From positions 1-18,399 of the forward strand of contig RFIY01000242.1 of the NCBI GenBank assembly GCA_003695505.1: 18,399 nucleotides of DNA, written 5' to 3'. The DNA is from J088 sp003695505 [NCBI: Candidatus Dadabacteria bacterium] (GTDB taxonomy: Bacteria > J088). Both the position numbers and the translations under genes were made by a program. Below the pieces are notes generated by a model that ran no database searches, had not been told where the DNA came from, and was given only the letters and a program-made list of their open reading frames with translations. Shown here piece by piece: positions 2,693 to 16,713 of this stretch (within the stretch, counting starts at the first letter, position 1; every line of letters starts with the position of its first letter).

Positions 2693-2712
2693 TGAGCCGG
2701 GAGCGGGTGTAT

Positions 2713-4983
2713 ATGGCCATCGACTTCGTGCAGCTTCTGCTTGTCCTGGGTGCAGCCTGGGGCGCGGGGTTGCTGGCATCGCGCGTAGGGTTTCCGGCCA
2801 TTCTCGGCGAGCTGTCGGTTGGGATCATCCTTGGGCCTGCATTGCTTGGCGTCTTCGCGCCCAACGATGCGCTGAGCGTGCTTGCCGAAGTCGGTGTCTA
2901 CCTCTTGATGCTCTACATCGGGATGGAGATCGAGCCGCGGCAGCTTGTGCGCGCGTCGTCGGCCGGTCTGCTTGCCGCCGTCGGAGGCTTCATCGTCCCG
3001 TTTGCGGCGGGGCTCGCCCTGATGATCGGGTCGGGTTATTCGACGACGGCCGGCCTGTTCATGGGTATGGCCATGGGCGTCACGTCGCTGGCAACCAAGT
3101 CGCGCATCCTCGTAGATCTGCAACTGGTCGGCACGCGCATTGCCAGCGTCATGATGGTTGGCGCGCTCTTTGCGGATACGCTTGCGCTGGTTCTGTTTGC
3201 CGGGATCATCAGTTTTGCATCGTCGGGTACGGTCGACCTGCTCTCGGTCGCCGTGACGATTGGCAAGGCACTGCTGTTCTTCGGCGCCGCCGGATTTATC
3301 GGCTTGCGCGTCTTCCCGTGGCTTGGCGCGCGCCTGCACCGTATCGGTGCCGATGAGCGAACGGCCAACTTCACGCTGATCGTGCTCGTCGCGCTCTGTT
3401 TCGGCGAACTGGCGCACCTGGCCGGACTGCATGGGATTCTCGGCGCGTTTCTCGCGGGCGTGTTTCTGCAGGAAGGGATCCTGCAACGCAAGTGGTCGCA
3501 CGACATCGCGGGCGTCGTGCACGATCTGTCGATCGGGTTCCTTGCACCAATATTTTTCGTCAGTGCAGGCTTTCACGTCTCGCTCGACGTCGTGACGACG
3601 CACACGGCATTGTTGCTGGGCGTCATCGTACTGGCGACCGTTGGCAAGATTCTCGGTACGATGCTGTTCTATCTGCCGAGCGGGTATGGCTGGAGAGAGG
3701 GCCTGGCCGTCGGCACGGGAATGAACGGGCGCGGCGCGGTCGAGATCATCATCGCCGAGATCGCACTGGCGATGGGTGTCATCACGCAGGACATTTTTTC
3801 GATCCTCGTACTGATGGCATTCGTGACGACCCTGACCGTGCCGCTGTTACTTGGATGGTCGGTGCGCTGGTTGCGTCGTCGTGGCGAGCTTGCGCTTGAT
3901 GACAGTGATCGGGTTCGAACCATCATCCTTGGCGCGACGCCGTTCGGTCTGGCGCTCGCCGAGGCCCTTTCCGAACGTGGTCCGGTCGCGTTGATCGAGC
4001 GTAACAAGCTGCGTATTCGACTGGCCAGACAACGCGGTTTTGAGGTTGTCGAGGGGGATGCGCTCGCGCATGTGGCCCTGTATGCCGCCGGAGCCGAGCA
4101 GGCGCATACGCTGATCGTCGCGTTCAGCGACGTGCCCGCAGGCCTCGTTGCGGCACGCTATGCCCACAATCGTTTCGGGGTGCCGCGCTGCGTCGTGCCA
4201 TCCGTTTCGCATGCGCCCGATGCGCTGTCGCCGGATCTCGAGAGCGGCTACATCGATCAGATGATCCTGACCGATGAGGTCGTGGCCGAACTGACGTCGG
4301 CCGGCGGTGACGATGAGTACACGTTGCGCACGGCGGTTCTTCCCGATGCCGATGTGGATCCCGAAGAGTGGTTGCAGGCGTTCGGGCCGGACAGTGCGCC
4401 AATTGCCGTCGGAGATGGCGAGCAACGGCGGCCGCTCGTGCGCGGCGATCTGCCCCGTGCCGGCGAAACGGTCGTGCTAGTGGTGCGAAGAGGACAGCGC
4501 CACCACGGGCGCCGCAGCGCCTGGACCTGGCTGCGTCAGGCTCCGATCGTCGAACTGGACGGTGCAACGACAGATGATTGCCTGGCCGGACTGGCGGGCG
4601 AACTCGCGCGACTCGCAGGCCGAGATGAGGGTACGGTTCTGGAATTGCTGCGCCGACGGGAGCAGGAGGAACCGACGACGATTGCGCCAGGTGTCGCCGT
4701 CCCCCACATTACCCTGGAACAGCTCGGGGCGCCGCGGATTGTTCTCGGTCGCTCGCAGCCGGTACCGGCGGATCGCGCCGAATTCGGCCCGGTGCGACTG
4801 TGGATTGCGATTGCCAGCGACCCGGATCGCCGCGACGAATACCTGTGGGCGCTCTGGGCCGTTGCACGTCTGGCCGGCGACCGCGGGTTCATCGACGAAT
4901 GGGCCGAGTCAAACCGGGAAACACTTCCGGCCGTCCTGGCCGCCGCGATTGAACGAGCAACGGGAGAGGGTGCGGTTTCCTGA
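2713..4983 (+). CDS. CPA2-type cation:proton antiporter with RCK (TrkA-N) and PTS EIIA domains
   Basis: A 756-aa inner-membrane transporter with three modules. Residues ~5-385 are a Na+/H+-exchanger (KefB/CPA2-like) domain of about 12 helices, with the family-typical FPAILGELSVGIILGP near the start and GMNGRGAVEIIIAEIAL in the later core. Residues ~400-515 are a Rossmann RCK/TrkA-N domain; its glycine motif reads GATPFG, with the middle glycine replaced. Residues ~611-756 resemble a fructose/nitrogen-type PTS EIIA domain, with the phosphorylation motif GVAVPH placing the phospho-acceptor at His665. It probably exchanges K+ or Na+ for H+ under nucleotide control, possibly also under PTS phosphorylation. 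The ATG at 2713 is preferred over GTG 2707 because CGGGAG (2698-2703) is then 9 bases away. Ion selectivity cannot be read from the sequence. Confidence 0.9.
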   Translation: MAIDFVQLLLVLGAAWGAGLLASRVGFPAILGELSVGIILGPALLGVFAPNDALSVLAEVGVYLLMLYIGMEIEPRQLVRASSAGLLAAVGGFIVPFAAGLALMIGSGYSTTAGLFMGMAMGVTSLATKSRILVDLQLVGTRIASVMMVGALFADTLALVLFAGIISFASSGTVDLLSVAVTIGKALLFFGAAGFIGLRVFPWLGARLHRIGADERTANFTLIVLVALCFGELAHLAGLHGILGAFLAGVFLQEGILQRKWSHDIAGVVHDLSIGFLAPIFFVSAGFHVSLDVVTTHTALLLGVIVLATVGKILGTMLFYLPSGYGWREGLAVGTGMNGRGAVEIIIAEIALAMGVITQDIFSILVLMAFVTTLTVPLLLGWSVRWLRRRGELALDDSDRVRTIILGATPFGLALAEALSERGPVALIERNKLRIRLARQRGFEVVEGDALAHVALYAAGAEQAHTLIVAFSDVPAGLVAARYAHNRFGVPRCVVPSVSHAPDALSPDLESGYIDQMILTDEVVAELTSAGGDDEYTLRTAVLPDADVDPEEWLQAFGPDSAPIAVGDGEQRRPLVRGDLPRAGETVVLVVRRGQRHHGRRSAWTWLRQAPIVELDGATTDDCLAGLAGELARLAGRDEGTVLELLRRREQEEPTTIAPGVAVPHITLEQLGAPRIVLGRSQPVPADRAEFGPVRLWIAIASDPDRRDEYLWALWAVARLAGDRGFIDEWAESNRETLPAVLAAAIERATGEGAVS

Positions 4984-4997
4984 GCCAGGTCAAACCC

Positions 4998-5043
4998 AAA
5001 AAAAGCAGCCAGCACCTGGAACTGGTGCTGGCCGCTTTTTGGG
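4998..5043. terminator. Bidirectional intrinsic terminator
   Basis: GCCAGCACC and GGTGCTGGC form a 9-bp perfect stem around TGGAACT. The stem continues past an A/C mismatch through GC pairs into an A-run on the left (AAAAAAAGC) and a T-run on the right (GCTTTTTGGG). It works in both directions: it ends the antiporter transcript 15 bp after its stop, and the lipoprotein transcript arriving on the minus strand (stop at 5081). Confidence 0.93.
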
Positions 5044-9405: not shown

Positions 9406-9571
9406 TGCGGTCGCCCCCGCAGAACTCGCATTCGCCTTCGAGACCGACCGCGCCGAGTCCACCGCATGATCCCTTGATCGGGTCACGGCGAAACAATACA
9501 CCGACGGCCATTGCCGCAATCACGACCAGAAACACGACCAGCGTCAGCAAAAACAGTTTTACAGCCATCAT
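9371..9571 (-). CDS. nqrM: Na+-NQR maturation protein NqrM
   Basis: A 66-aa membrane-anchored protein of the NqrM (formerly DUF539) family, which is needed to mature the NQR complex, most probably by delivering iron to the site formed by NqrD and NqrE. Residues 5-27 form one helix, followed by FRRDPIKGSCGGLGAVG and four cysteines at 36, 48, 51 and 58, the family hallmark. ATG 9571 overlaps the apbE stop as ATGA. A second ATG at 9568 is also possible and better spaced from the GAGG inside apbE. Its place directly after apbE in an nqrABCDEF-apbE-nqrM order is the classical arrangement and supports the call. Confidence 0.93.
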   Translation of the reverse strand: MMAVKLFLLTLVVFLVVIAAMAVGVLFRRDPIKGSCGGLGAVGLEGECEFCGGDRSDCKRRQPDAV

Positions 9572-10626
9572 GGCACCTCTTCATCTTCAGTGTACCTGTT
9601 CAGTTGGTCGGTGAACCAGCGGTTTTCTGTCGTGCGAAAACCCTGACCGTCATGGTCAATGAAGAGCGCAGGGATGCGCCAGTTGTTTGCAATGGCCAGG
9701 CCGCGTTTGCTGCCGGCCGCGAGTAATGCGGTCGCCCAGGCGTCGGCTTCACCGCAATCAGGCAGCAGGACGGTGACCGATGCCGTCGAATGGGTGACAG
9801 GGTGACCGCTGTGCGGGTCGATCGTGTGGCTGAGGCGCTGGCCGTTGACCACGCGGTAGTTTCGGTAGTCTCCGGAGGTTGCCAGGGAAATATCGCTCAG
9901 CTCAAGTACGCGCGAAATAGATCGGCCCGCGGGATCCGGTTGTTCTATGCCGATTCGCCAGAGGGTGCCGTCCGGTTTCCTGCCGTGCAGCCGTACCTCG
10001 CCGCCGACTTCGACCATATAGCCGAGGGCCTGGAGCTTGTCCAGGTCGGCGGCGACCGCGTCCACGGCCCAGCCTTTGGCAATCGCCGAAAGATCGAGCG
10101 TGACATCGGTGGTGCGCAGAACATCCTGGCCACGCAGACGAATGAATCGCCAGCCCGCCCGGTGTCGCAACGCGGTGAGCTCAGCGGCGGTTGGTGCGGT
10201 CGTTCTTCGGGACGGACCGAAGCCCCATGCGTCGACGAGCGGAAAGACCGTTGGATCAAAGTAGCCTTCACTGCGCTGCCAGACGCGATCGGCGACCTTG
10301 AGCAATTTCGCGAAATCGCGGGAAACGCGAAAACGCTTGCCGACCGGGGCGCGGTTGAGGCGGTTCAGTTCCGAGTTGGGTTTCCAGGTGGAGTAGCGGC
10401 GGTCAAGCTCGCGCAACCGGCTGTTGATCTGTCGCTCGACATCGGCTCGGATCGCCGGCGCGACGGCCGCCGCATAGACCGCGTGAACGGTCCAGGTGGT
10501 GCCCATGCTCTGGCCATGAAACGTCAATTGGGTGCGATCGGCCGGGCGCGAACATGCAGCGAGCAGGAACACAAGCCAAAGCCCCGCAAGAGCGGGGCTT
10601 TGGCGCAAACGTACGATAAGACCCAT
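9568..10626 (-). CDS. apbE: FAD:protein FMN transferase ApbE (lipoprotein)
   Basis: A 352-aa lipoprotein that covalently transfers FMN from FAD to a Thr in target proteins on the periplasmic side; here the targets are NqrB and NqrC of the same operon. The leader ends in LLAAC (acceptor Cys25). Family motifs run in order: GQSMGTTW (38-45), GYFDPTVFPLVDAWGFG (121-137), DLSAIAKGWAVD (178-189), VEVGGEVR (205-212), SHTIDPHSGHPV (266-277) and ADAWATALL (294-302). The ATG at 10626 lies 13 bp after the nqrF stop and has only a weak ribosome site. Codons 8-18, within the signal peptide, form a perfect 13-bp hairpin (separate entry). The stop overlaps the nqrM start. Confidence 0.96.
   Translation of the reverse strand: MGLIVRLRQSPALAGLWLVFLLAACSRPADRTQLTFHGQSMGTTWTVHAVYAAAVAPAIRADVERQINSRLRELDRRYSTWKPNSELNRLNRAPVGKRFRVSRDFAKLLKVADRVWQRSEGYFDPTVFPLVDAWGFGPSRRTTAPTAAELTALRHRAGWRFIRLRGQDVLRTTDVTLDLSAIAKGWAVDAVAADLDKLQALGYMVEVGGEVRLHGRKPDGTLWRIGIEQPDPAGRSISRVLELSDISLATSGDYRNYRVVNGQRLSHTIDPHSGHPVTHSTASVTVLLPDCGEADAWATALLAAGSKRGLAIANNWRIPALFIDHDGQGFRTTENRWFTDQLNRYTEDEEVP
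10575..10604 (-). other. 13-bp perfect hairpin inside the start of apbE
   Basis: GCCAAAGCCCCGC and GCGGGGCTTTGGC pair without mismatch around a 4-base loop. On the minus strand the following bases are TTGTGTTCC, only moderately T-rich. The AAAGCCCCGC/GCGGGGCTTT core looks like a classical intrinsic terminator, but here it lies within coding sequence, about 36 bases downstream of the nqrF stop. It could reduce transcription into apbE-nqrM, block 3' exonucleases, or affect translation of the apbE leader. Confidence 0.6.
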
Positions 10627-10639
10627 TGGAATCTGGCGG

Positions 10640-11860
10640 TCAGCCACCAAAGTCGTCGAAGAAGATGTTCTCACGCTCAACGCCGAGGCTGTCGAGCATG
10701 TTGATGACGGCATCGATCATCAACGGTGGGCCGCACAGGTAGTACTCGCAGTCCTCGGGAGCCGGGTGGTCCTTGAGGTAGTTTTCGTAGACGACCTGAT
10801 GAATGAAGCCGACAGGGCCGTCCCAGTTATCTTCGGGCTGTGGATCCGACAGCGCAACGTGCCACGAGAAGTTCTCGTGCTCTTCGGCGAGTTTTTTGAA
10901 GTGATCGTCGTAGAACAGTTCGCGAAGTGAGCGGGCACCGTACCAGTACGAAATCTTGCGCTGGGAATGGCGGCGCTTGAGCAGGTCGAAGACGTGCGAG
11001 CGCAGCGGCGCCATCCCTGCACCACCACCGATGTAGATCATTTCGGCGTCGGTTTCCTGGATGAAGAATTCGCCGAACGGACCGTAGACGGTCACCTTGT
11101 CTCCGGGTTTGCGGCTGAATACATATGACGACATTCGCCCGGGCGGCAGATCGGTGCCGGGCGGCGGCGTAGCGATCCGGATGTTGAACATCAGAATGCC
11201 CTTCTCGTCCGGATAGTTGGCCATCGAGTAGGCGCGGACCGTTTCTTCGTCGACCTTCGACTCGATGTCCCAGAGATTGAACCGGTCCCAGTCGGGGCGG
11301 TATTCCTCTTCGATATCGAAATCACGGAACGTGCAGTGGTAGGGCGGTGCTTCGAGCTGTACGTATCCACCCGCCTTGAATTCGACCTCTTCCCCTGGCG
11401 GTAGTTCGAGCACCAGCTCCTTGATGAAGGTCGCGACGTTGTGGTTGGAGCGCACGGTGCATTCCCAACGCTTGACACCAAAGACTTCTTCGGGAACCTG
11501 GACCTTGAGGTCTTCCTTGACCGTGAGCTGGCAGGACAGCCGCGCGCCTTCTGCAATTTCGCGCTTGGTGAAGTGGACCGCTTCCGTTGGAAGGATGTCG
11601 CCGCCGCCTTCCTTGACGATGACGCGGCATTGCGCGCAGGTACCCCCGCCGCCACAGGCCGACGAAAGAAAGATTCCCTGATCAGCGAGGGCGTTGAGCA
11701 GTTTGGCGCCAGCCGGGACCTCCAGAAGCTTCTCGTCATTGATCAGAACCTTGACCGGCCCGGTCGGAACGAGGCGCTTTCGGGCGAAGATAATGACCAG
11801 CGCCAGCGCCAGGACGATCAGCGTGAACATGACGACGCCGAGAAGAATGTCGAAAATCAT
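10640..11860 (-). CDS. nqrF: Na+-translocating NADH:quinone oxidoreductase subunit F
   Basis: A 406-aa subunit, the usual length. It is the entry point of the complex: it takes electrons from NADH to FAD and on to a [2Fe-2S] cluster on the cytosolic face. One N-terminal helix (4-26) anchors it. The ferredoxin domain has cluster ligands Cys69, Cys75, Cys78 and Cys110 ([12 protein letters not shown] ... LSC). The FAD motif [11 protein letters not shown] and the NADH-binding [12 protein letters not shown] follow, and the protein ends in FDDFGG. The ATG at 11860 has AGG about 12 bases upstream. The gap to nqrE is 44 bp, the largest inside the nqrA-F block. Confidence 0.98.
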
Positions 11861-11904
11861 GATGGATACACCTGTAGAGCAGGAAACATCTGGTCAGCGA
11901 GAAA

Positions 11905-12513
11905 TCAGAGCTGTACGCCGGAAAATGCCATGAACGCCATGGCCATCAGGCCGGCGGTGATAAACGTGATGCCCAGTCCTTTCAGCCCGTCTGGGACATC
12001 GGCGAATTTCAGTCGTTCGCGGATCCCGGCAAGTCCGACGATCGCCAGCGCCCATCCCGCACCGGAACCGAATCCGTAGACGACACTCTCGCCGAAGGTG
12101 TAGTCTCGTTCGACCATGAACAGGGAGCCACCAAGGATCGCGCAGTTGACGGTAATCAGCGGCAGGAAAATCCCGAGTGCGTTGTAGAGCGCCGGAAAAA
12201 ACCGATCGAGCGTCATTTCGAGAATCTGGACGATCGCGGCGATGACGCCAATGTAGCTGACGTAACCGAGGAATGTGAGATCGACATCGGGCAGTCCCGC
12301 CCAGGCCAGTGCGCCTTCGCGCAGCAGGTCATTGAAAATGATGTTGTTGACCGGCACGGTGATGGCCTGGACGACGATGACGGCGATGCCGAGACCAATC
12401 GCGGTCGCGATGCGTTTGGATACTGCAAGAAACGTACACATGCCGAGAAAGAAGGCCAGCGCCATGTTCTCGACGAAGACCGCCTTGACAAACAGGCTGA
12501 TGTAGTGCTCCAT
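11905..12513 (-). CDS. nqrE: Na+-translocating NADH:quinone oxidoreductase subunit E
   Basis: A 202-aa integral membrane subunit with six helices. It pairs with NqrD as an inverted pseudo-twofold partner in the Na+/electron path. The metal-site cysteines are visible at Cys26 ([14 protein letters not shown]) and Cys124 ([10 protein letters not shown]), one in each half-helix pair. The ATG at 12513 has GGAGG 6 bases upstream. It lies 12 bp after the nqrD stop. Confidence 0.98.
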
Positions 12514-12525
12514 GACGAACCTCCG

Positions 12526-13206
12526 TCAGGCGGCCAGCGGCAGGTCGTATTCCGCCGCCTCTTCGTTGGTGATCACATGAAACTCTTCATGTTCGACCTG
12601 TTCGGGCTTTGCGGTGCGCAGTGCCCAGATGATGAAGCCGATCAGGAAGAAAGCGCTCGGGGGCATCAGCATCAGCCCATTGGGCACATACCATCCGCCA
12701 TCCGTGACTGGAATCAGCAATTTGTGACCCAGCAGGGATCCCGACCCCAGCAGCTCGCGAACGACCGAAAGGGATACAAGGATGAAGCTGTAGCCGAGGC
12801 CGTTGCCGATGCCATCGAGGAAGCTGAGCCCCGGCGGGTTCTTCATTGCGAAGGCTTCGGTGCGTCCCATCACGATGCAGTTCGTGATAATCAGTCCGAC
12901 GAAGACCGACAGTTGTTTGCTGAGACCGTATGCAAAGGCGCGCAAAATCTGATCGACCACGATGACGAGTGACGCGATGATCGTCATCTGGACGATAATC
13001 CGAATACTCGACGGAATATGATTGCGAATCAGACTCACGCCGAGATTGGAGAACGCCGTGACTGCCGTCAGCGCAGCTGCCATAACGAGGGCCGTATTCA
13101 TTTGTCCGGTGACCGCTAGTGCGGAGCAGATACCAAGGATCTGCAAGGCGATCGGATTGTTGTCAAAAATCGGCCCGAACAGAATTTTCTTCGGCGATTC
13201 GGCCAT
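12526..13206 (-). CDS. nqrD: Na+-translocating NADH:quinone oxidoreductase subunit D
   Basis: A 226-aa integral membrane subunit, a relative of NqrE. Conserved cysteines are Cys27 ([11 protein letters not shown]) and Cys110 ([10 protein letters not shown]), which with the NqrE pair form the intramembrane iron or [2Fe-2S] centre. The C-terminus extends past the last helix with an acidic tail (residues ~200-226). The ribosome site AAGGAGG, 7 bases before the ATG at 13206, is the strongest in the operon, suggesting high translation. It starts 17 bp after the nqrC stop. Confidence 0.98.
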
Positions 13207-13223
13207 GGACAGACCTCCTTCGG

Positions 13224-14006
13224 TCAGGAAATGGCGCCCTGTTGCAGCTTGCGCAGGAACGGGTGGTAGCCCTGGTCTCCGAGCCAGAAATGCATCATGT
13301 GTTCCACGCCATTGGATGTCAGTGTTGCACCGGACAGGCCGTCAACCTTGTGCTCGGCACCGGGCGCAGAAGCATCGACGCGACCCTTGATGACATCAAG
13401 CGCGACGGCACCGTTGTCATCGTAGATCTTCTTGCCGTGCCAGAGGGCCTTCCAGCGCGGGTTGTCGACTTCACCGCCGAGGCCCGGCGTTTCCGCGTGC
13501 TCGTAGTATGTGAGCCCGCAGATGGTATTGCCATCGGCCTCAACACAGAGGAATCCGCGCAATGTCGACCACAGGCCGTAACCGCGGATCGGCAGGATGA
13601 CCTTGTCGATGGCGCCGTCGGGCGTTCGGACAATGTAGATCTGCGCGTAATGCTCGCGGCGACCGATCCCGGCAATATCTGCCTCACGCGGCAATTTGTC
13701 GCTCAGATTCGGATCTTTTTCCGCGCGTCGCTGATCGTAGGTGTCGGGATCAACGGCTGTCGTGTACGCTCCGGTGTCGAGGTCGATGACCCGACGCTCT
13801 ATCTTGCTGAACGCCGTTGCCACATCGGTATCATCGTGTAGAAGTCCGGCCGCTTCAAGAACATTCTTCTGCAGGTCGAGCGCCTTGTTTTTTTCCTGAT
13901 AGGGCTTGAGCAGGACGGCCGCGCTGGAGACCAGAACGGAACAGACGATGGCGACGGAGGCCGCGACGATAATGGTCTTGCCGACGGTGTCGTTGGATGC
14001 GCTCAT
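13224..14006 (-). CDS. nqrC: Na+-translocating NADH:quinone oxidoreductase subunit C
   Basis: A 260-aa subunit with one N-terminal helix (about 11-34) and a periplasmic domain that carries covalent FMN. The flavinylation motif is canonical: DGLSGAT with the FMN acceptor Thr228, the substrate of ApbE. The ATG at 14006 overlaps the nqrB stop as ATGA, and GCAGGAG within the end of nqrB serves as ribosome site, so the two should be translationally coupled. Confidence 0.98.
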
Positions 14007-15232
14007 TGGCCGGCTCCTGCCAGGCTGAGCCGCCGCTTGCGGCGACGAATGTTGGCCTGCGTTACAAAGTAGTCGATCAGTGGGGCAAAAACATTACCAA
14101 ACAGAATTGCAAGCATCATGCCTTCGGGGAAGGCAGGATTGACGACGCGGACGAGCATGACCATGACGCCAATCAGCACGCCGTACCAGAAGCGACCAGC
14201 CTCAGTCATCGCCGCGGAGACTGGATCCGTTGCCATGAAGACCATGCCGTAGGCGAAGCCGCCCAGGACGAGGTGCCAGTACCACGGCATCGCGAACATC
14301 GGGTTGGTGTCGCTGCCGATCAGATTGAACAGCGTCGAGATGACGACCATGCCGGTAAACACGCCGGCCATAATGCGCCACGAGCCAATCCGCGTCAGAA
14401 TCAGCAGCCCGGCGCCGGCGAGAATCAGCAGCGTGGACGTTTCGCCGATCGAGCCCGGGATGAATCCGAGGAACGCATCCAGCCAGGTCACACCCGCATC
14501 ATGCAACGCCGGGACCCCTCCTTGCGCGGCGATCGCCAGCGGTGTCGCGCGTGTTGCGCCGTCCACAGCGACCCAGACCGCATCGCCGGACATTTGTGCC
14601 GGGTAGGCGAAGAACAGGAATGCGCGGCCAACCAGTGCCGGGTTGAGGAAGTTCTTGCCGACGCCACCGAAGACTTCCTTGCCGACGACGACGCCAAAGG
14701 CGATACCAAGGGCGACCTGCCAGAGCGGGATGGTCGGCGGCAGGATCAGCGAAAAGAGAATGGATGTGACGAGGAAACCTTCGGTGATTTCGTGGCCACG
14801 GACGATTGCGAACAGCGCTTCGAGGTTGCCGCCGACGATCAAGGTCACCAGGTAGATCGGCAGAAAGTACATTGCGCCGTGCAACAGACAATGCCAGATG
14901 TTGCCGGGATCGAAGCCGGCGAGTGCGGCGACGATCGCGCCGCGCCAGCCTTCGGCGGCGGTCAGGCCCATCGCAGCCATGGTGGCGTTCGCCTGATAGC
15001 CGACTGCATACATACCGAAGATCATTGCCGGCAGCGTCGCGAACCAGACGGTGATCATGACGCGCTTGAGATCGGCGCCATCGCGGACGTGCGACGCCGT
15101 TCGTGTGCGCTCTGCGGGCGTAAACAGGAAGGTGAACGGCGCTTCGTAGAGCGCGTGGAACTTTTCGAGCGACCCGCCCTTTTCGAACAGGTGCTCCTTG
15201 CTTTTGAGGAGGTCGAGCAGTTTTTGTTTCAT
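14003..15232 (-). CDS. nqrB: Na+-translocating NADH:quinone oxidoreductase subunit B
   Basis: A 409-aa multi-helix membrane subunit, the Na+-translocating core, with covalent FMN and, in characterised complexes, bound riboflavin. Family-typical segments include [14 protein letters not shown] near the N-terminus, [37 protein letters not shown] and [16 protein letters not shown]. The FMN site reads DGATRAT with acceptor Thr230. The usual SGAT is replaced by TRAT, so the Gly before Ala is an Arg. The start is ATG 15232 (MKQKLLDLL), 7 bp after the nqrA stop, with AGGT overlapping that stop; longer in-frame starts at up to 15295 lie inside nqrA and add a non-family N-terminus. Confidence 0.97.
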
Positions 15233-15239
15233 CCCAGAC

Positions 15240-16586
15240 CTACCATTCCCGTTCGATCTCTGCGAGGTTCTTGCGCAGGATCGGGCCGTAGTCATTCTTG
15301 CTCGGGCAGACGAAGGTGCACAGCGCCAGATCTTCTTCGTCCAGATCGAGTACGCCGAGTTCGATCGCAGTATCGGTATCTCCGACCAGGATCGCGCGAA
15401 GTAGCGGCGAGATCAGGATGTCGAGCGGCCAGACATCGTCATAGACGCTGAGTGGGATCATGGCTCGTGGGCTGCCGTGCGTGTCAGTCGTCAGTTCATA
15501 CTCTCGTTCGGGATCCAGCAGCCGGTCGAGATAGATGTTGAGTGCCGAAAACTTGTCCTTGCCGCCGCTGAGTGCAAGCCAGCCGAGCAGTTCATGTTCG
15601 ACGCGGTCGGAGATCGCCGAGACCTGCGTGTGGTAGCGACCGAGGTAGTCGATCGGCGCAATGCTCAATCGTCCGGACAGCACCGAACCCGAGACCACGC
15701 GCGTCGGCCCTTCGCGCAATTCGTCGGCGGTCAGGTCGGACAGACTCGCGCCCAGACGCGTGCGCAGGTAACGGGGATCGCGTACTTGTGGGCCGCCGAA
15801 TGCAACGATCCGCGTCGTCTCGAGCCGCCCTTCGCGCAGCAGCGTCGCCAGCGCCAGGACATCCTGATAGCCGATCGTCCAAACCGTGCGGTGCTGCCCC
15901 ACGGGTTCGAGATAGTGGATGTGGGTACCCACCAGACCCGCCGGGTGTGGTCCGTCGAATGATACGACCCTGACGCCATCCACGTCGACCCCGGGAACCC
16001 AGGTGTCAGCCTGTTTGGTCACGTACACGGGACCGCTGGTCAGGCGTGTCAACGCGGTCAGGCCTGCCTGAAAATCGTCGGCGCGGTCGCGGATGATCGG
16101 CACCGGGTCGAGGGCCAGCGGATTCGTGTCCATCGCCGCAACGAAAATGGCGGCCGGGCGAGAACCCGGATCCGGCACTTTCGAGAATGGGCGCGTGCGG
16201 AACGCGGTCCACATCCCGGATTCGAGCAGCAATGCTTCGAGTTGTTCAGCAGAGCTGGTGGCCGGATCAAGCGTCGAAAATGTTTCCTGATCATCGCTGC
16301 CATCCAGCTCAATTTCGACCGAAAGCAGTCGCCGTTTCAGGCCCCGGTTTACCGCCAGGACCTTGCCGGTTCCCGGTGACGTAAAGCGGATGTCCGGCCG
16401 TTTCTTGTCGACGAAGAGCGTCTGCCCGAGCCGAACCGAATCGCCTTCGGCGACCTGCAGGGTTGGACGCAAGCCGTGGTAGTCTGGGCCAATCAGCGCG
16501 ACGCGACGAACTTCGGCGCCGTCTTCAATGACGGGGCGAGGTCGGCCGGCAATCGGAATATCCAGACCGCGTTTGATTTTGATCAT
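15240..16586 (-). CDS. nqrA: Na+-translocating NADH:quinone oxidoreductase subunit A
   Basis: A 448-aa peripheral subunit, the usual length, that has no tightly bound cofactor of its own and contributes to quinone and inhibitor interaction on the cytosolic side. The N-terminus [14 protein letters not shown] and the C-terminal segments [53 protein letters not shown] (quoted piecewise by region 395-435) are typical of the family. The start is ATG 16586 with GGGAG 8 bases upstream; a 19-residue extension upstream in frame is not family-like. First gene of the nqr operon, behind a 342-bp leader region. Confidence 0.97.
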
Positions 16587-16590
16587 GGTG

Positions 16591-16713
16591 TCAGCTCCCG
16601 CGGCGAGAGAAGGAAGCGTTGGATCTGTACATACGGAGACCATTCAGGTCAACCGGATGGTGAGGCAACAAACTGCGTTCGGTCAGGGGCCAGGCAACGA
16701 TGCCCCAAGCCAT
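16591..16713 (-). CDS. Possible leader ORF in the nqrA 5' region
   Basis: A 40-codon frame from ATG 16713 to a TGA only 4 bases before the nqrA ATG. It begins MAWGIVAWPLTERS and is otherwise unremarkable. The ribosome site is poor (AGG directly next to the ATG, GGAG too far). If translated, its termination would occur on the nqrA ribosome site and could couple the two. Chance is a good alternative explanation. Confidence 0.15.
   Translation of the reverse strand: MAWGIVAWPLTERSLLPHHPVDLNGLRMYRSNASFSRRGS

What the first reader, a model, noticed from the sequence alone, without database searches (positions are those of the whole stretch)
4546..4983. PTS EIIA domain fused to a CPA2 antiporter with an RCK domain
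The last ~145 residues look like a fructose/Ntr-type EIIA with an intact GVAVPH phosphorylation motif (His665), attached to an exchanger that already has a nucleotide-binding RCK domain. In E. coli, free EIIA-Ntr is known to bind TrkA and KdpD and thus control K+ transport. Here the regulator would be covalently tied to its target, which suggests direct control of cation/proton exchange by the phosphorylation state of the PTS. Antiporter-EIIA fusions may already be present in databases, but I know of no mechanism for them.
Basis: partly seen in the sequence, partly recalled or inferred. Interest (0 to 1): 0.6.

Follow-up and report, generated by a model that had tools for sequence, protein, structure and literature searches.

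The report
Cation antiporter with PTS EIIA tail
This gene encodes a membrane pump that swaps cations for protons and carries, at its tail, a phosphate-accepting domain of the bacterial sugar-phosphate relay, so the cell's energy and nutrient state could switch the pump directly; such tails turn up on several unrelated transporters, this particular layout being rare.

Summary
It is no chimera: the genome has a second such protein and a Gemmatimonadota MAG a third. The genome encodes EI, HPr, a ptsP-like protein and PtsN.

Two corrections. The RCK glycine motif is eroded. The EIIA is not PtsN-type: in a tree of 65 EIIA domains it falls (99/98) with EIIA tails of APC amino-acid permeases and of a Mrp antiporter subunit, apart from PtsN, fructose EIIAs and 23 other EIIAs of CPA2 exchangers; one origin of all antiporter EIIAs is rejected (p 7e-5). 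CPA2-EIIA fusions without RCK occur in at least 22 of 385 other genomes sampled, so the architecture is not unique; the RCK-EIIA module was found in one of them.

Most likely mechanism: phosphorylation of the tail by HPr gates antiport, as a covalent form of the E. coli PtsN-YcgO switch (PMC11808508). Direction and ion are inferred. Verdict: new variant of a known kind.

The parts
2707..4983 (+). CPA2 exchanger-RCK-EIIA fusion protein, 758 aa from GTG (756 aa from the likelier ATG at 2713)
   Evidence: ORF and translation; GGAG at 2700-2703 before ATG 2713; Pfam
2764..3855 (+). Na_H_Exchanger transmembrane domain, residues 20-383
   Evidence: Pfam 3e-59; best solved relative NapA 4bwz; groups with the two fused relatives and haloarchaeal stand-alone exchangers
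3175..3177 (+). Asp157, aligned with the essential NapA D157 / KefC D156; preceded by Ala instead of NapA's Asp (AD instead of DD)
   Evidence: alignment; role of D156/D157 from PMC11150392 passages
3646..3648 (+). Lys314, aligned with NapA K305
   Evidence: alignment; invariant in the three relatives
3922..4197 (+). TrkA_N / RCK_N domain, residues 406-497, with degenerate glycine motif GATPFG
   Evidence: Pfam 1.4e-14; alignment; the best modelled part of the C-terminal half, pLDDT about 60-90
4198..4527 (+). RCK_C-like linker region, residues 498-607, poorly conserved (12-22% identity between the three proteins)
   Evidence: identity by region; RCK_C resemblance is read by eye, no Pfam match listed
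4537..4980 (+). PTS EIIA domain, residues 611-758
   Evidence: Pfam PTS_EIIA_2 624-737; profile match 4537-4980 (the window is in that profile); profile-profile match to PtsN
4705..4707 (+). His667 (His665 from ATG 2713), predicted phosphorylation site in GVAVPH
   Evidence: conserved in 64 of 65 EIIA domains
5000..5040 (.). terminator-like stem-loop just downstream, found on both strands
   Evidence: consensus scan, not evidence of function

Best explanation
A CPA2-family cation/proton antiporter whose activity is gated by the phosphorylation state of its own C-terminal EIIA domain. Shown: one continuous protein with exchanger, RCK-like region and EIIA; a conserved PH histidine; a second such protein and the likely donors (EI, HPr, ptsP-like) in the genome. 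Inferred: PEP -> EI -> HPr phosphorylates His667 (His665 from ATG); the unphosphorylated EIIA packs on the RCK region and holds the exchanger in one state (by analogy with YcgO, off), phosphorylation releases it. The EIIA belongs to a clade of tails that also sits on APC permeases and on a Mrp subunit, so it looks like a portable relay-to-transporter module and not a captured PtsN. Ion (Na+ or K+) and direction of control are not determined. I put phosphorylation-dependent control at about 0.6 and 'unphosphorylated = off' at about 0.4.
For: Domain architecture repeated in a paralogue and in a MAG named Gemmatimonadota. PH histidine kept in 4 of 4 RCK-antiporter EIIAs, 22 of 23 other CPA2-EIIA, 15 of 15 APC, 2 of 2 MnhG tails in the set aligned. 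EI (585 aa) and HPr with PTS IIB/IIC/IID genes on C29, ptsP-like protein on C188, PtsN on C76 (HPr's His15 and Ser46 and an HprK-like gene next to ptsN were named by eye, not by a family search). EI is found in 66 of 68 sampled genomes with a tail-type EIIA or a CPA2-EIIA fusion. E. coli precedent in trans: unphospho-PtsN binds YcgO and inhibits K+/H+ antiport; phosphorylation weakens binding (PMC11808508, abstract and passages). EIIA attachment to antiporters appears to have arisen more than once.
Against: No experiment. The EIIA is the weakest Pfam match of the three domains and less conserved than the exchanger (33-38% against 47-69% identity). The second active-site histidine of PtsN (H120 in E. 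coli, recalled) is Tyr in this protein and in the Gemmatimonadota one, though also in 3 of 17 PtsN rows and 2 of 4 fructose rows. Two of the 68 genomes (G372, G030) show no EI N-domain, and EI is about as frequent in genomes with any EIIA, so co-occurrence adds little. AlphaFold models of the EIIA were poor. The YcgO work points to its CorC domain as the docking site; no CorC match was listed for this protein.
Confidence: 0.55

Rival explanations
1. The EIIA tail is a folded docking or oligomerisation module that no longer takes part in phosphotransfer; regulation, if any, comes through the RCK region or a partner protein.
For: Second active-site His is Tyr and the motif before PH reads PTT where PtsN rows mostly have ST; weak Pfam score; in a related protein (L104) the first of two EIIAs has Asn for the PH histidine.
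Against: The PH histidine itself is kept in 64 of 65 domains over large distances; L104 keeps it in its second EIIA; Tyr at the second position also occurs in PtsN and fructose EIIA rows.
Confidence: 0.22
2. The tail acts outward: a membrane-tethered EIIA that buffers or passes phosphate to other PTS partners (for instance an EIIB, or PtsN targets), with the exchanger as anchor or ion sensor that modulates the relay.
For: The genome has other PTS parts (IIB/IIC/IID of the mannose/sorbose family, PtsN) that could receive phosphate.
Against: The same tail clade sits on transporters of unrelated families (APC, Mrp subunit, CPA2), which fits control of transport better than a shared phosphate acceptor.
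Confidence: 0.1
3. The exchanger is regulated by ions or nucleotides through its RCK region as in KefC, and the EIIA merely tunes it or reports sugar-PTS flux to it.
For: TrkA_N is the best modelled C-terminal part; haloarchaeal relatives have a separate NAD(P)-binding gene just upstream in 2 of 4 loci viewed.
Against: Glycine-rich nucleotide motif eroded in all three proteins.
Confidence: 0.1
4. Assembly chimera or frame artefact joining unrelated genes.
For: The genome is fragmented: 395 contigs, completeness 84.5%.
Against: Same order of domains on a second contig and in a MAG named Gemmatimonadota at 51% identity.
Confidence: 0.02

Closest known systems
E. coli YcgO (CvrA) controlled by free PtsN (PMC11808508)
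   Same: Cation/proton antiporter with an RCK-like region, controlled by the phosphorylation state of an EIIA protein
   Different: YcgO is CPA1 with RCK_C and CorC and binds a separate PtsN; here CPA2, TrkA_N region, EIIA covalent and of another EIIA clade
CPA2-EIIA fusion proteins without RCK (at least 22 of 385 other sampled genomes)
   Same: CPA2 exchanger with C-terminal EIIA and conserved PH histidine
   Different: No RCK region found with my RCK profile (14 have EIIA directly behind the exchanger, 7 have about 140 unidentified residues between, 1 is broken by a stop); EIIA groups with PtsN and fructose EIIAs; exchanger lies elsewhere in the tree
APC amino-acid permeases with C-terminal EIIA (54 of 61 places at 81 bits or more)
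   Same: EIIA of the same clade at the C-terminus of a secondary transporter
   Different: Unrelated transporter family; no RCK hit with my profile
KefC / KefB
   Same: CPA2 exchanger with C-terminal TrkA_N domain
   Different: No EIIA; KefC has GFGRFG and QD, here GATPFG and AD
NapA of Thermus thermophilus
   Same: Closest solved exchanger (9.7e-36); essential Asp and Lys kept
   Different: DD motif is AD here; the NapA chain (394 residues) ends with the exchanger

Membership tests
PTS EIIA family 2 (PF00359) | match above the curated Pfam cut-off | tested here: met
   35.5 bits against 27; relatives 60.7 and 55.1
PTS EIIA family 2 (PF00359) | phosphorylatable histidine in the PH motif | tested here: met
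   GVAVPH; 64 of 65 domains
PTS EIIA family 2 (PF00359) | accepts phosphate from HPr | not testable with these tools
   donors are encoded; no biochemistry
PtsN (EIIA-Ntr) | reaches NCBIfam PtsN models | tested here: not met
   PRK10896 17.2 bits against 221; TIGR01419 not listed for this protein at E 0.01. The genome's own PtsN scores 77 of 138.7 for TIGR01419, so the cut-off is strict
PtsN (EIIA-Ntr) | groups with free PtsN in a tree | tested here: not met
   separated with support 99/98, 99/91
CPA2 antiporters | Na_H_Exchanger domain with the essential Asp | tested here: met
   3e-59; Asp157 aligned with NapA D157
CPA2 antiporters | TIGR00932 (2a37) model above its cut-off | tested here: not met
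   139.8 bits against 238.3, though the best of the models listed
RCK nucleotide-binding regulators | TrkA_N domain | tested here: met
   1.4e-14
RCK nucleotide-binding regulators | GxGxxG motif | tested here: not met
   GATPFG here; GGTPTA and TPVTTVG in relatives
CPA2-EIIA fusions without RCK | EIIA of common origin with theirs | tested here: not met
   AU test p 7.4e-5, log-likelihood 82.3 lower (the group was named after the first tree was seen)
YcgO-type PTS-controlled antiporter | CorC domain as docking site for EIIA | tested here: not met
   no CorC match listed by Pfam at E up to 1

The most novel reading that the evidence does not exclude
A distinct EIIA clade has become a portable phosphorelay tail for membrane transport: it was joined to APC permeases, to CPA2-RCK antiporters and to the MnhG subunit of Mrp antiporters, and lets the PTS set proton and cation flux directly, without gene expression and without free PtsN.
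Probability: 0.4. Interest if true: 0.7.

Novelty: new variant of a known kind. Interest (0 to 1): 0.5.

Why it matters
In E. coli the link between PTS state and K+ or H+ transport rests on transient binding of PtsN. Proteins in which regulator and transporter are one chain make the question testable with a single purified protein: does phosphorylation of one histidine change antiport? The wider pattern, one EIIA clade on three unrelated transporter types, suggests that coupling of PTS state to ion homeostasis may be more common than the PtsN papers that I saw imply.

Tried and rejected
The Foldseek top hit was EIIA-Ntr 1a6j at E 0.018, none at E 0.001 or below. VIA-align gave EIIA-Ntr chains Z 4.8 and 4.7, tied with unrelated chains: inconclusive.

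Idea that the EIIA is a captured PtsN: rejected by the tree. Idea that all antiporter EIIAs share one origin: rejected, with the caveat that the group was chosen after the first tree. Idea that the architecture is unique: rejected. Idea that EI co-occurrence proves function: dropped; 66 of 68 fusion genomes have EI against 203 of 317 others (Fisher p 1.4e-9), but comparing the printed lists by eye, EI is missing in only about 15 of 257 genomes with any EIIA match, so having an EIIA explains it. Four of the 68 (G660, G530, G645, G572) are counted on a fragment without its N-terminal part in the same frame.

The MnmG search in PDB did not settle it.

Rows dropped, contrary or mislabelled: one search skipped one 48-aa fragment (L100). 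One search left out L070, L072, L075 and L082 as duplicates or fragments; in it one APC protein with a Usp domain (L105, long branch) fell on the PtsN side, against a strict 'all APC tails are one clade'. One search used 15 of 32 APC rows (not L105), 17 of 22 PtsN rows and none of the GT2 rows or two unassigned rows; PilZ and CBS fusions were in neither tree. In one search (quick tree, SH-aLRT only, some long branches) rows none_L048 and none_L050 are duplicates of the fused L198 and L204 and should not be labelled 'none'. In one search no foreign hit reached the EIIA part, but that is an alignment limit: G030, G040, G045 and G050 of that list carry CPA2-EIIA genes. The printed match lists are cut or thresholded and one search scored at most three candidates per genome, so counts of fusions are lower bounds; two long hits in G594 were not opened. 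Part of the exchanger of L104 is masked.

Literature: ten counted paper searches listed no paper whose title or abstract start describes an antiporter-EIIA or APC-EIIA fusion; the passages I opened in PMC11808508, PMC13104625, PMC7349511, PMC2405797 and PMC3924187 mention none. The library holds only open-licence papers; a 2005 review of PTS proteins by Barabote and Saier that may mention fusions (recalled) is not held.

Full report
What is there. window:2707-4983 (+) is one open frame of 758 codons. Pfam finds a Na_H_Exchanger domain (20-383), TrkA_N (406-497) and PTS_EIIA_2 (624-737), each above its curated cut-off. The ATG lies 98 bases after mnmG on the same strand, and the gene is followed by a terminator-like stem-loop.

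It is real. The same genome encodes a second protein with the same order of domains (P0002, 38% identity), and a MAG named Gemmatimonadota a third (P0003, 51%). Between the three, the exchanger is 47-69% identical, TrkA_N 29-38%, the region between RCK_N and EIIA 12-22%, the EIIA 33-38%. The other 22 of 23 loci match only the TrkA part. Of 298 genomes around the Gemmatimonadota MAG only that MAG has the whole protein at E 1e-60.

The exchanger. The best solved relative is NapA (9.7e-36), then KefC. The essential Asp (NapA D157, KefC D156; roles from passages of PMC11150392) is Asp157 here and NapA's Lys305 is Lys314; NapA's first Asp of DD is Ala here, and Ser in the paralogue and in the four haloarchaeal relatives. 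In KefC an uncharged residue at that place goes with electroneutral exchange, so electroneutrality is a reasonable guess, no more. Stand-alone haloarchaeal exchangers (up to about 47% identity) form one group with the three fused proteins (SH-aLRT 100; quick tree of 59 rows). In two of four haloarchaeal loci viewed, a separate 'NAD(P)-binding protein' gene lies just upstream, as if the RCK part were still apart.

The RCK region. TrkA_N is there, but the glycine motif GxGxxG is GATPFG here, GGTPTA in the paralogue, and TPVTTVG in the third protein. Nucleotide binding is therefore doubtful. The stretch 498-607 looks to me like RCK_C, but Pfam listed no match for it.

The EIIA. Sequence, profile and PDB comparisons agree on EIIA, with PtsN as nearest solved relative. 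The PH histidine is kept. The position of the second active-site His of PtsN (recalled as H120) is Tyr here; the same position is Tyr in 3 of 17 PtsN and 2 of 4 fructose rows and Gln in 14 of 23 other CPA2-EIIA domains.

Which EIIA. A profile of the three tails searched against 386 genomes (own included) gave 61 places of 81 bits or more in 52 genomes besides the own one. I opened all 61: 54 show APC-permease sequence upstream in the same frame (three of them only in part), 2 are MnhG subunits with EIIA, 5 are fragments cut off by contig ends or masked bases. One MnhG-EIIA closes a Mrp gene run (genes matching MNHE, Proton_antipo_M, Oxidored_q2, MnhB and MbhD/MbhE). In a tree of 65 EIIA domains, APC tails (15), MnhG tails (2) and the RCK-antiporter EIIAs (4, including the second EIIA of L104) are split with support 99/98 from PtsN (17), fructose (4) and other CPA2-EIIA domains (23). 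An earlier tree of 70 gave the same split with 99/91, except that one APC-Usp-EIIA protein (L105) fell on the PtsN side. The APC and MnhG rows were found by similarity to the tails, so their nearness is partly by selection; the CPA2-EIIA rows were sought with a whole-protein profile that contained the window's protein, so their exclusion is not. Holding all 27 antiporter EIIAs together is rejected (p 7.4e-5).

How common. CPA2 exchangers with an EIIA and no RCK between occur in 22 of 385 other genomes (lower bound): in 14 the EIIA follows directly, in 7 after about 140 unidentified residues, and one (G376) is broken by a stop codon. The RCK-EIIA module was found in the own genome (two) and in G377, whose protein reads CPA2 - EIIA with Asn for His - RCK - EIIA with PH (that row was part of the search profile). 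So antiporter-EIIA fusion is a recurrent kind; this layout is a rare variant of it.

Phosphate supply. Contig C29 holds PTS IIB, IIC and IID genes of the mannose/sorbose family, HPr and EI; C188 a ptsP-like protein (GAF-like N-terminus read by eye); C76 PtsN between genes that by eye are hpf- and hprK-like. EI is present in 66 of 68 sampled genomes with a tail-type EIIA or CPA2-EIIA fusion (G372 and G030 lack it), but this is no better than for genomes with any EIIA.

Mechanism. In E. coli, unphosphorylated PtsN co-purifies with YcgO and inhibits its K+/H+ antiport, phosphorylation weakens the binding, and the authors' model has it block activation by the RCK domain (PMC11808508, abstract and passages; also passages of PMC13104625, and PMC7349511). 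The fused protein is the simplest covalent version: HPr phosphorylates His667, which changes how the EIIA packs on the RCK region and hence exchange. That the EIIA is phosphorylated, that this alters transport, and in which sense, are inferences. The window also holds the Na+-translocating NADH:quinone reductase genes nqrA-F with apbE on the other strand at 9568-16643, so the organism very probably runs a sodium cycle, which would fit a Na+/H+ exchanger; this is context, not evidence.

Verdict. Observation confirmed; interpretation partly supported; a new variant of a known kind. The larger lead is the portable EIIA tail on unrelated transporters (that APC permeases are mostly ion-coupled is recalled).

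Noticed in passing
L182:7710-8546 (-) and L183:356-1192 (+): EIIA of the same clade fused to MnhG, the Mrp Na+/H+ antiporter subunit; in L182 it is the last gene of a Mrp gene run.
   Followed up: partly
L187:7720-9546 and 9687-11381 (+): An APC-EIIA permease gene is followed on the same strand by a CPA2-EIIA antiporter gene (also held as L093 and L197); in the trees the first EIIA and the second lie in different clades.
   Followed up: partly
L104:863-3826 (-): CPA2 exchanger - EIIA with Asn for the PH histidine - RCK - EIIA with PH: a doubled EIIA, one copy apparently unable to be phosphorylated.
   Followed up: partly
L108:868-2502 (+), L109:995-2596 (-): Family 2 glycosyltransferase fused to a C-terminal EIIA; shown by Pfam for L109, L108 is closely similar by eye.
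   Followed up: no
L171:1643-2470 (+), L173:614-1642 (-), L105:986-3910 (-): EIIA fused to PilZ, to CBS domains, and to an APC permease with a Usp domain.
   Followed up: no
window:9568-16643 (-): nqrABCDEF and apbE, the Na+-translocating NADH:quinone reductase operon.
   Followed up: partly
L100:1151-1294 (-), own contig C305 end: A 48-residue contig-edge frame that differs at one residue from the C-terminus of the paralogue P0002: strain variant, repeat or assembly overlap.
   Followed up: partly
genomes G030 and G372: Carry transporter-EIIA fusions but no EI N-domain at E 1e-5 (G030 is listed as 100% complete), so the phosphate donor there is unclear.
   Followed up: no
L067 and L068 (haloarchaeal plasmids): Stand-alone exchanger related to the window's, with a small NAD(P)-binding protein gene directly upstream.
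   Followed up: partly
CPA2-EIIA proteins L197-L219 (without L201) and the first EIIA of L104: The position of PtsN's second active-site His is Gln in 14 of these 23 EIIAs while the PH histidine stays in 22 of 23.
   Followed up: no
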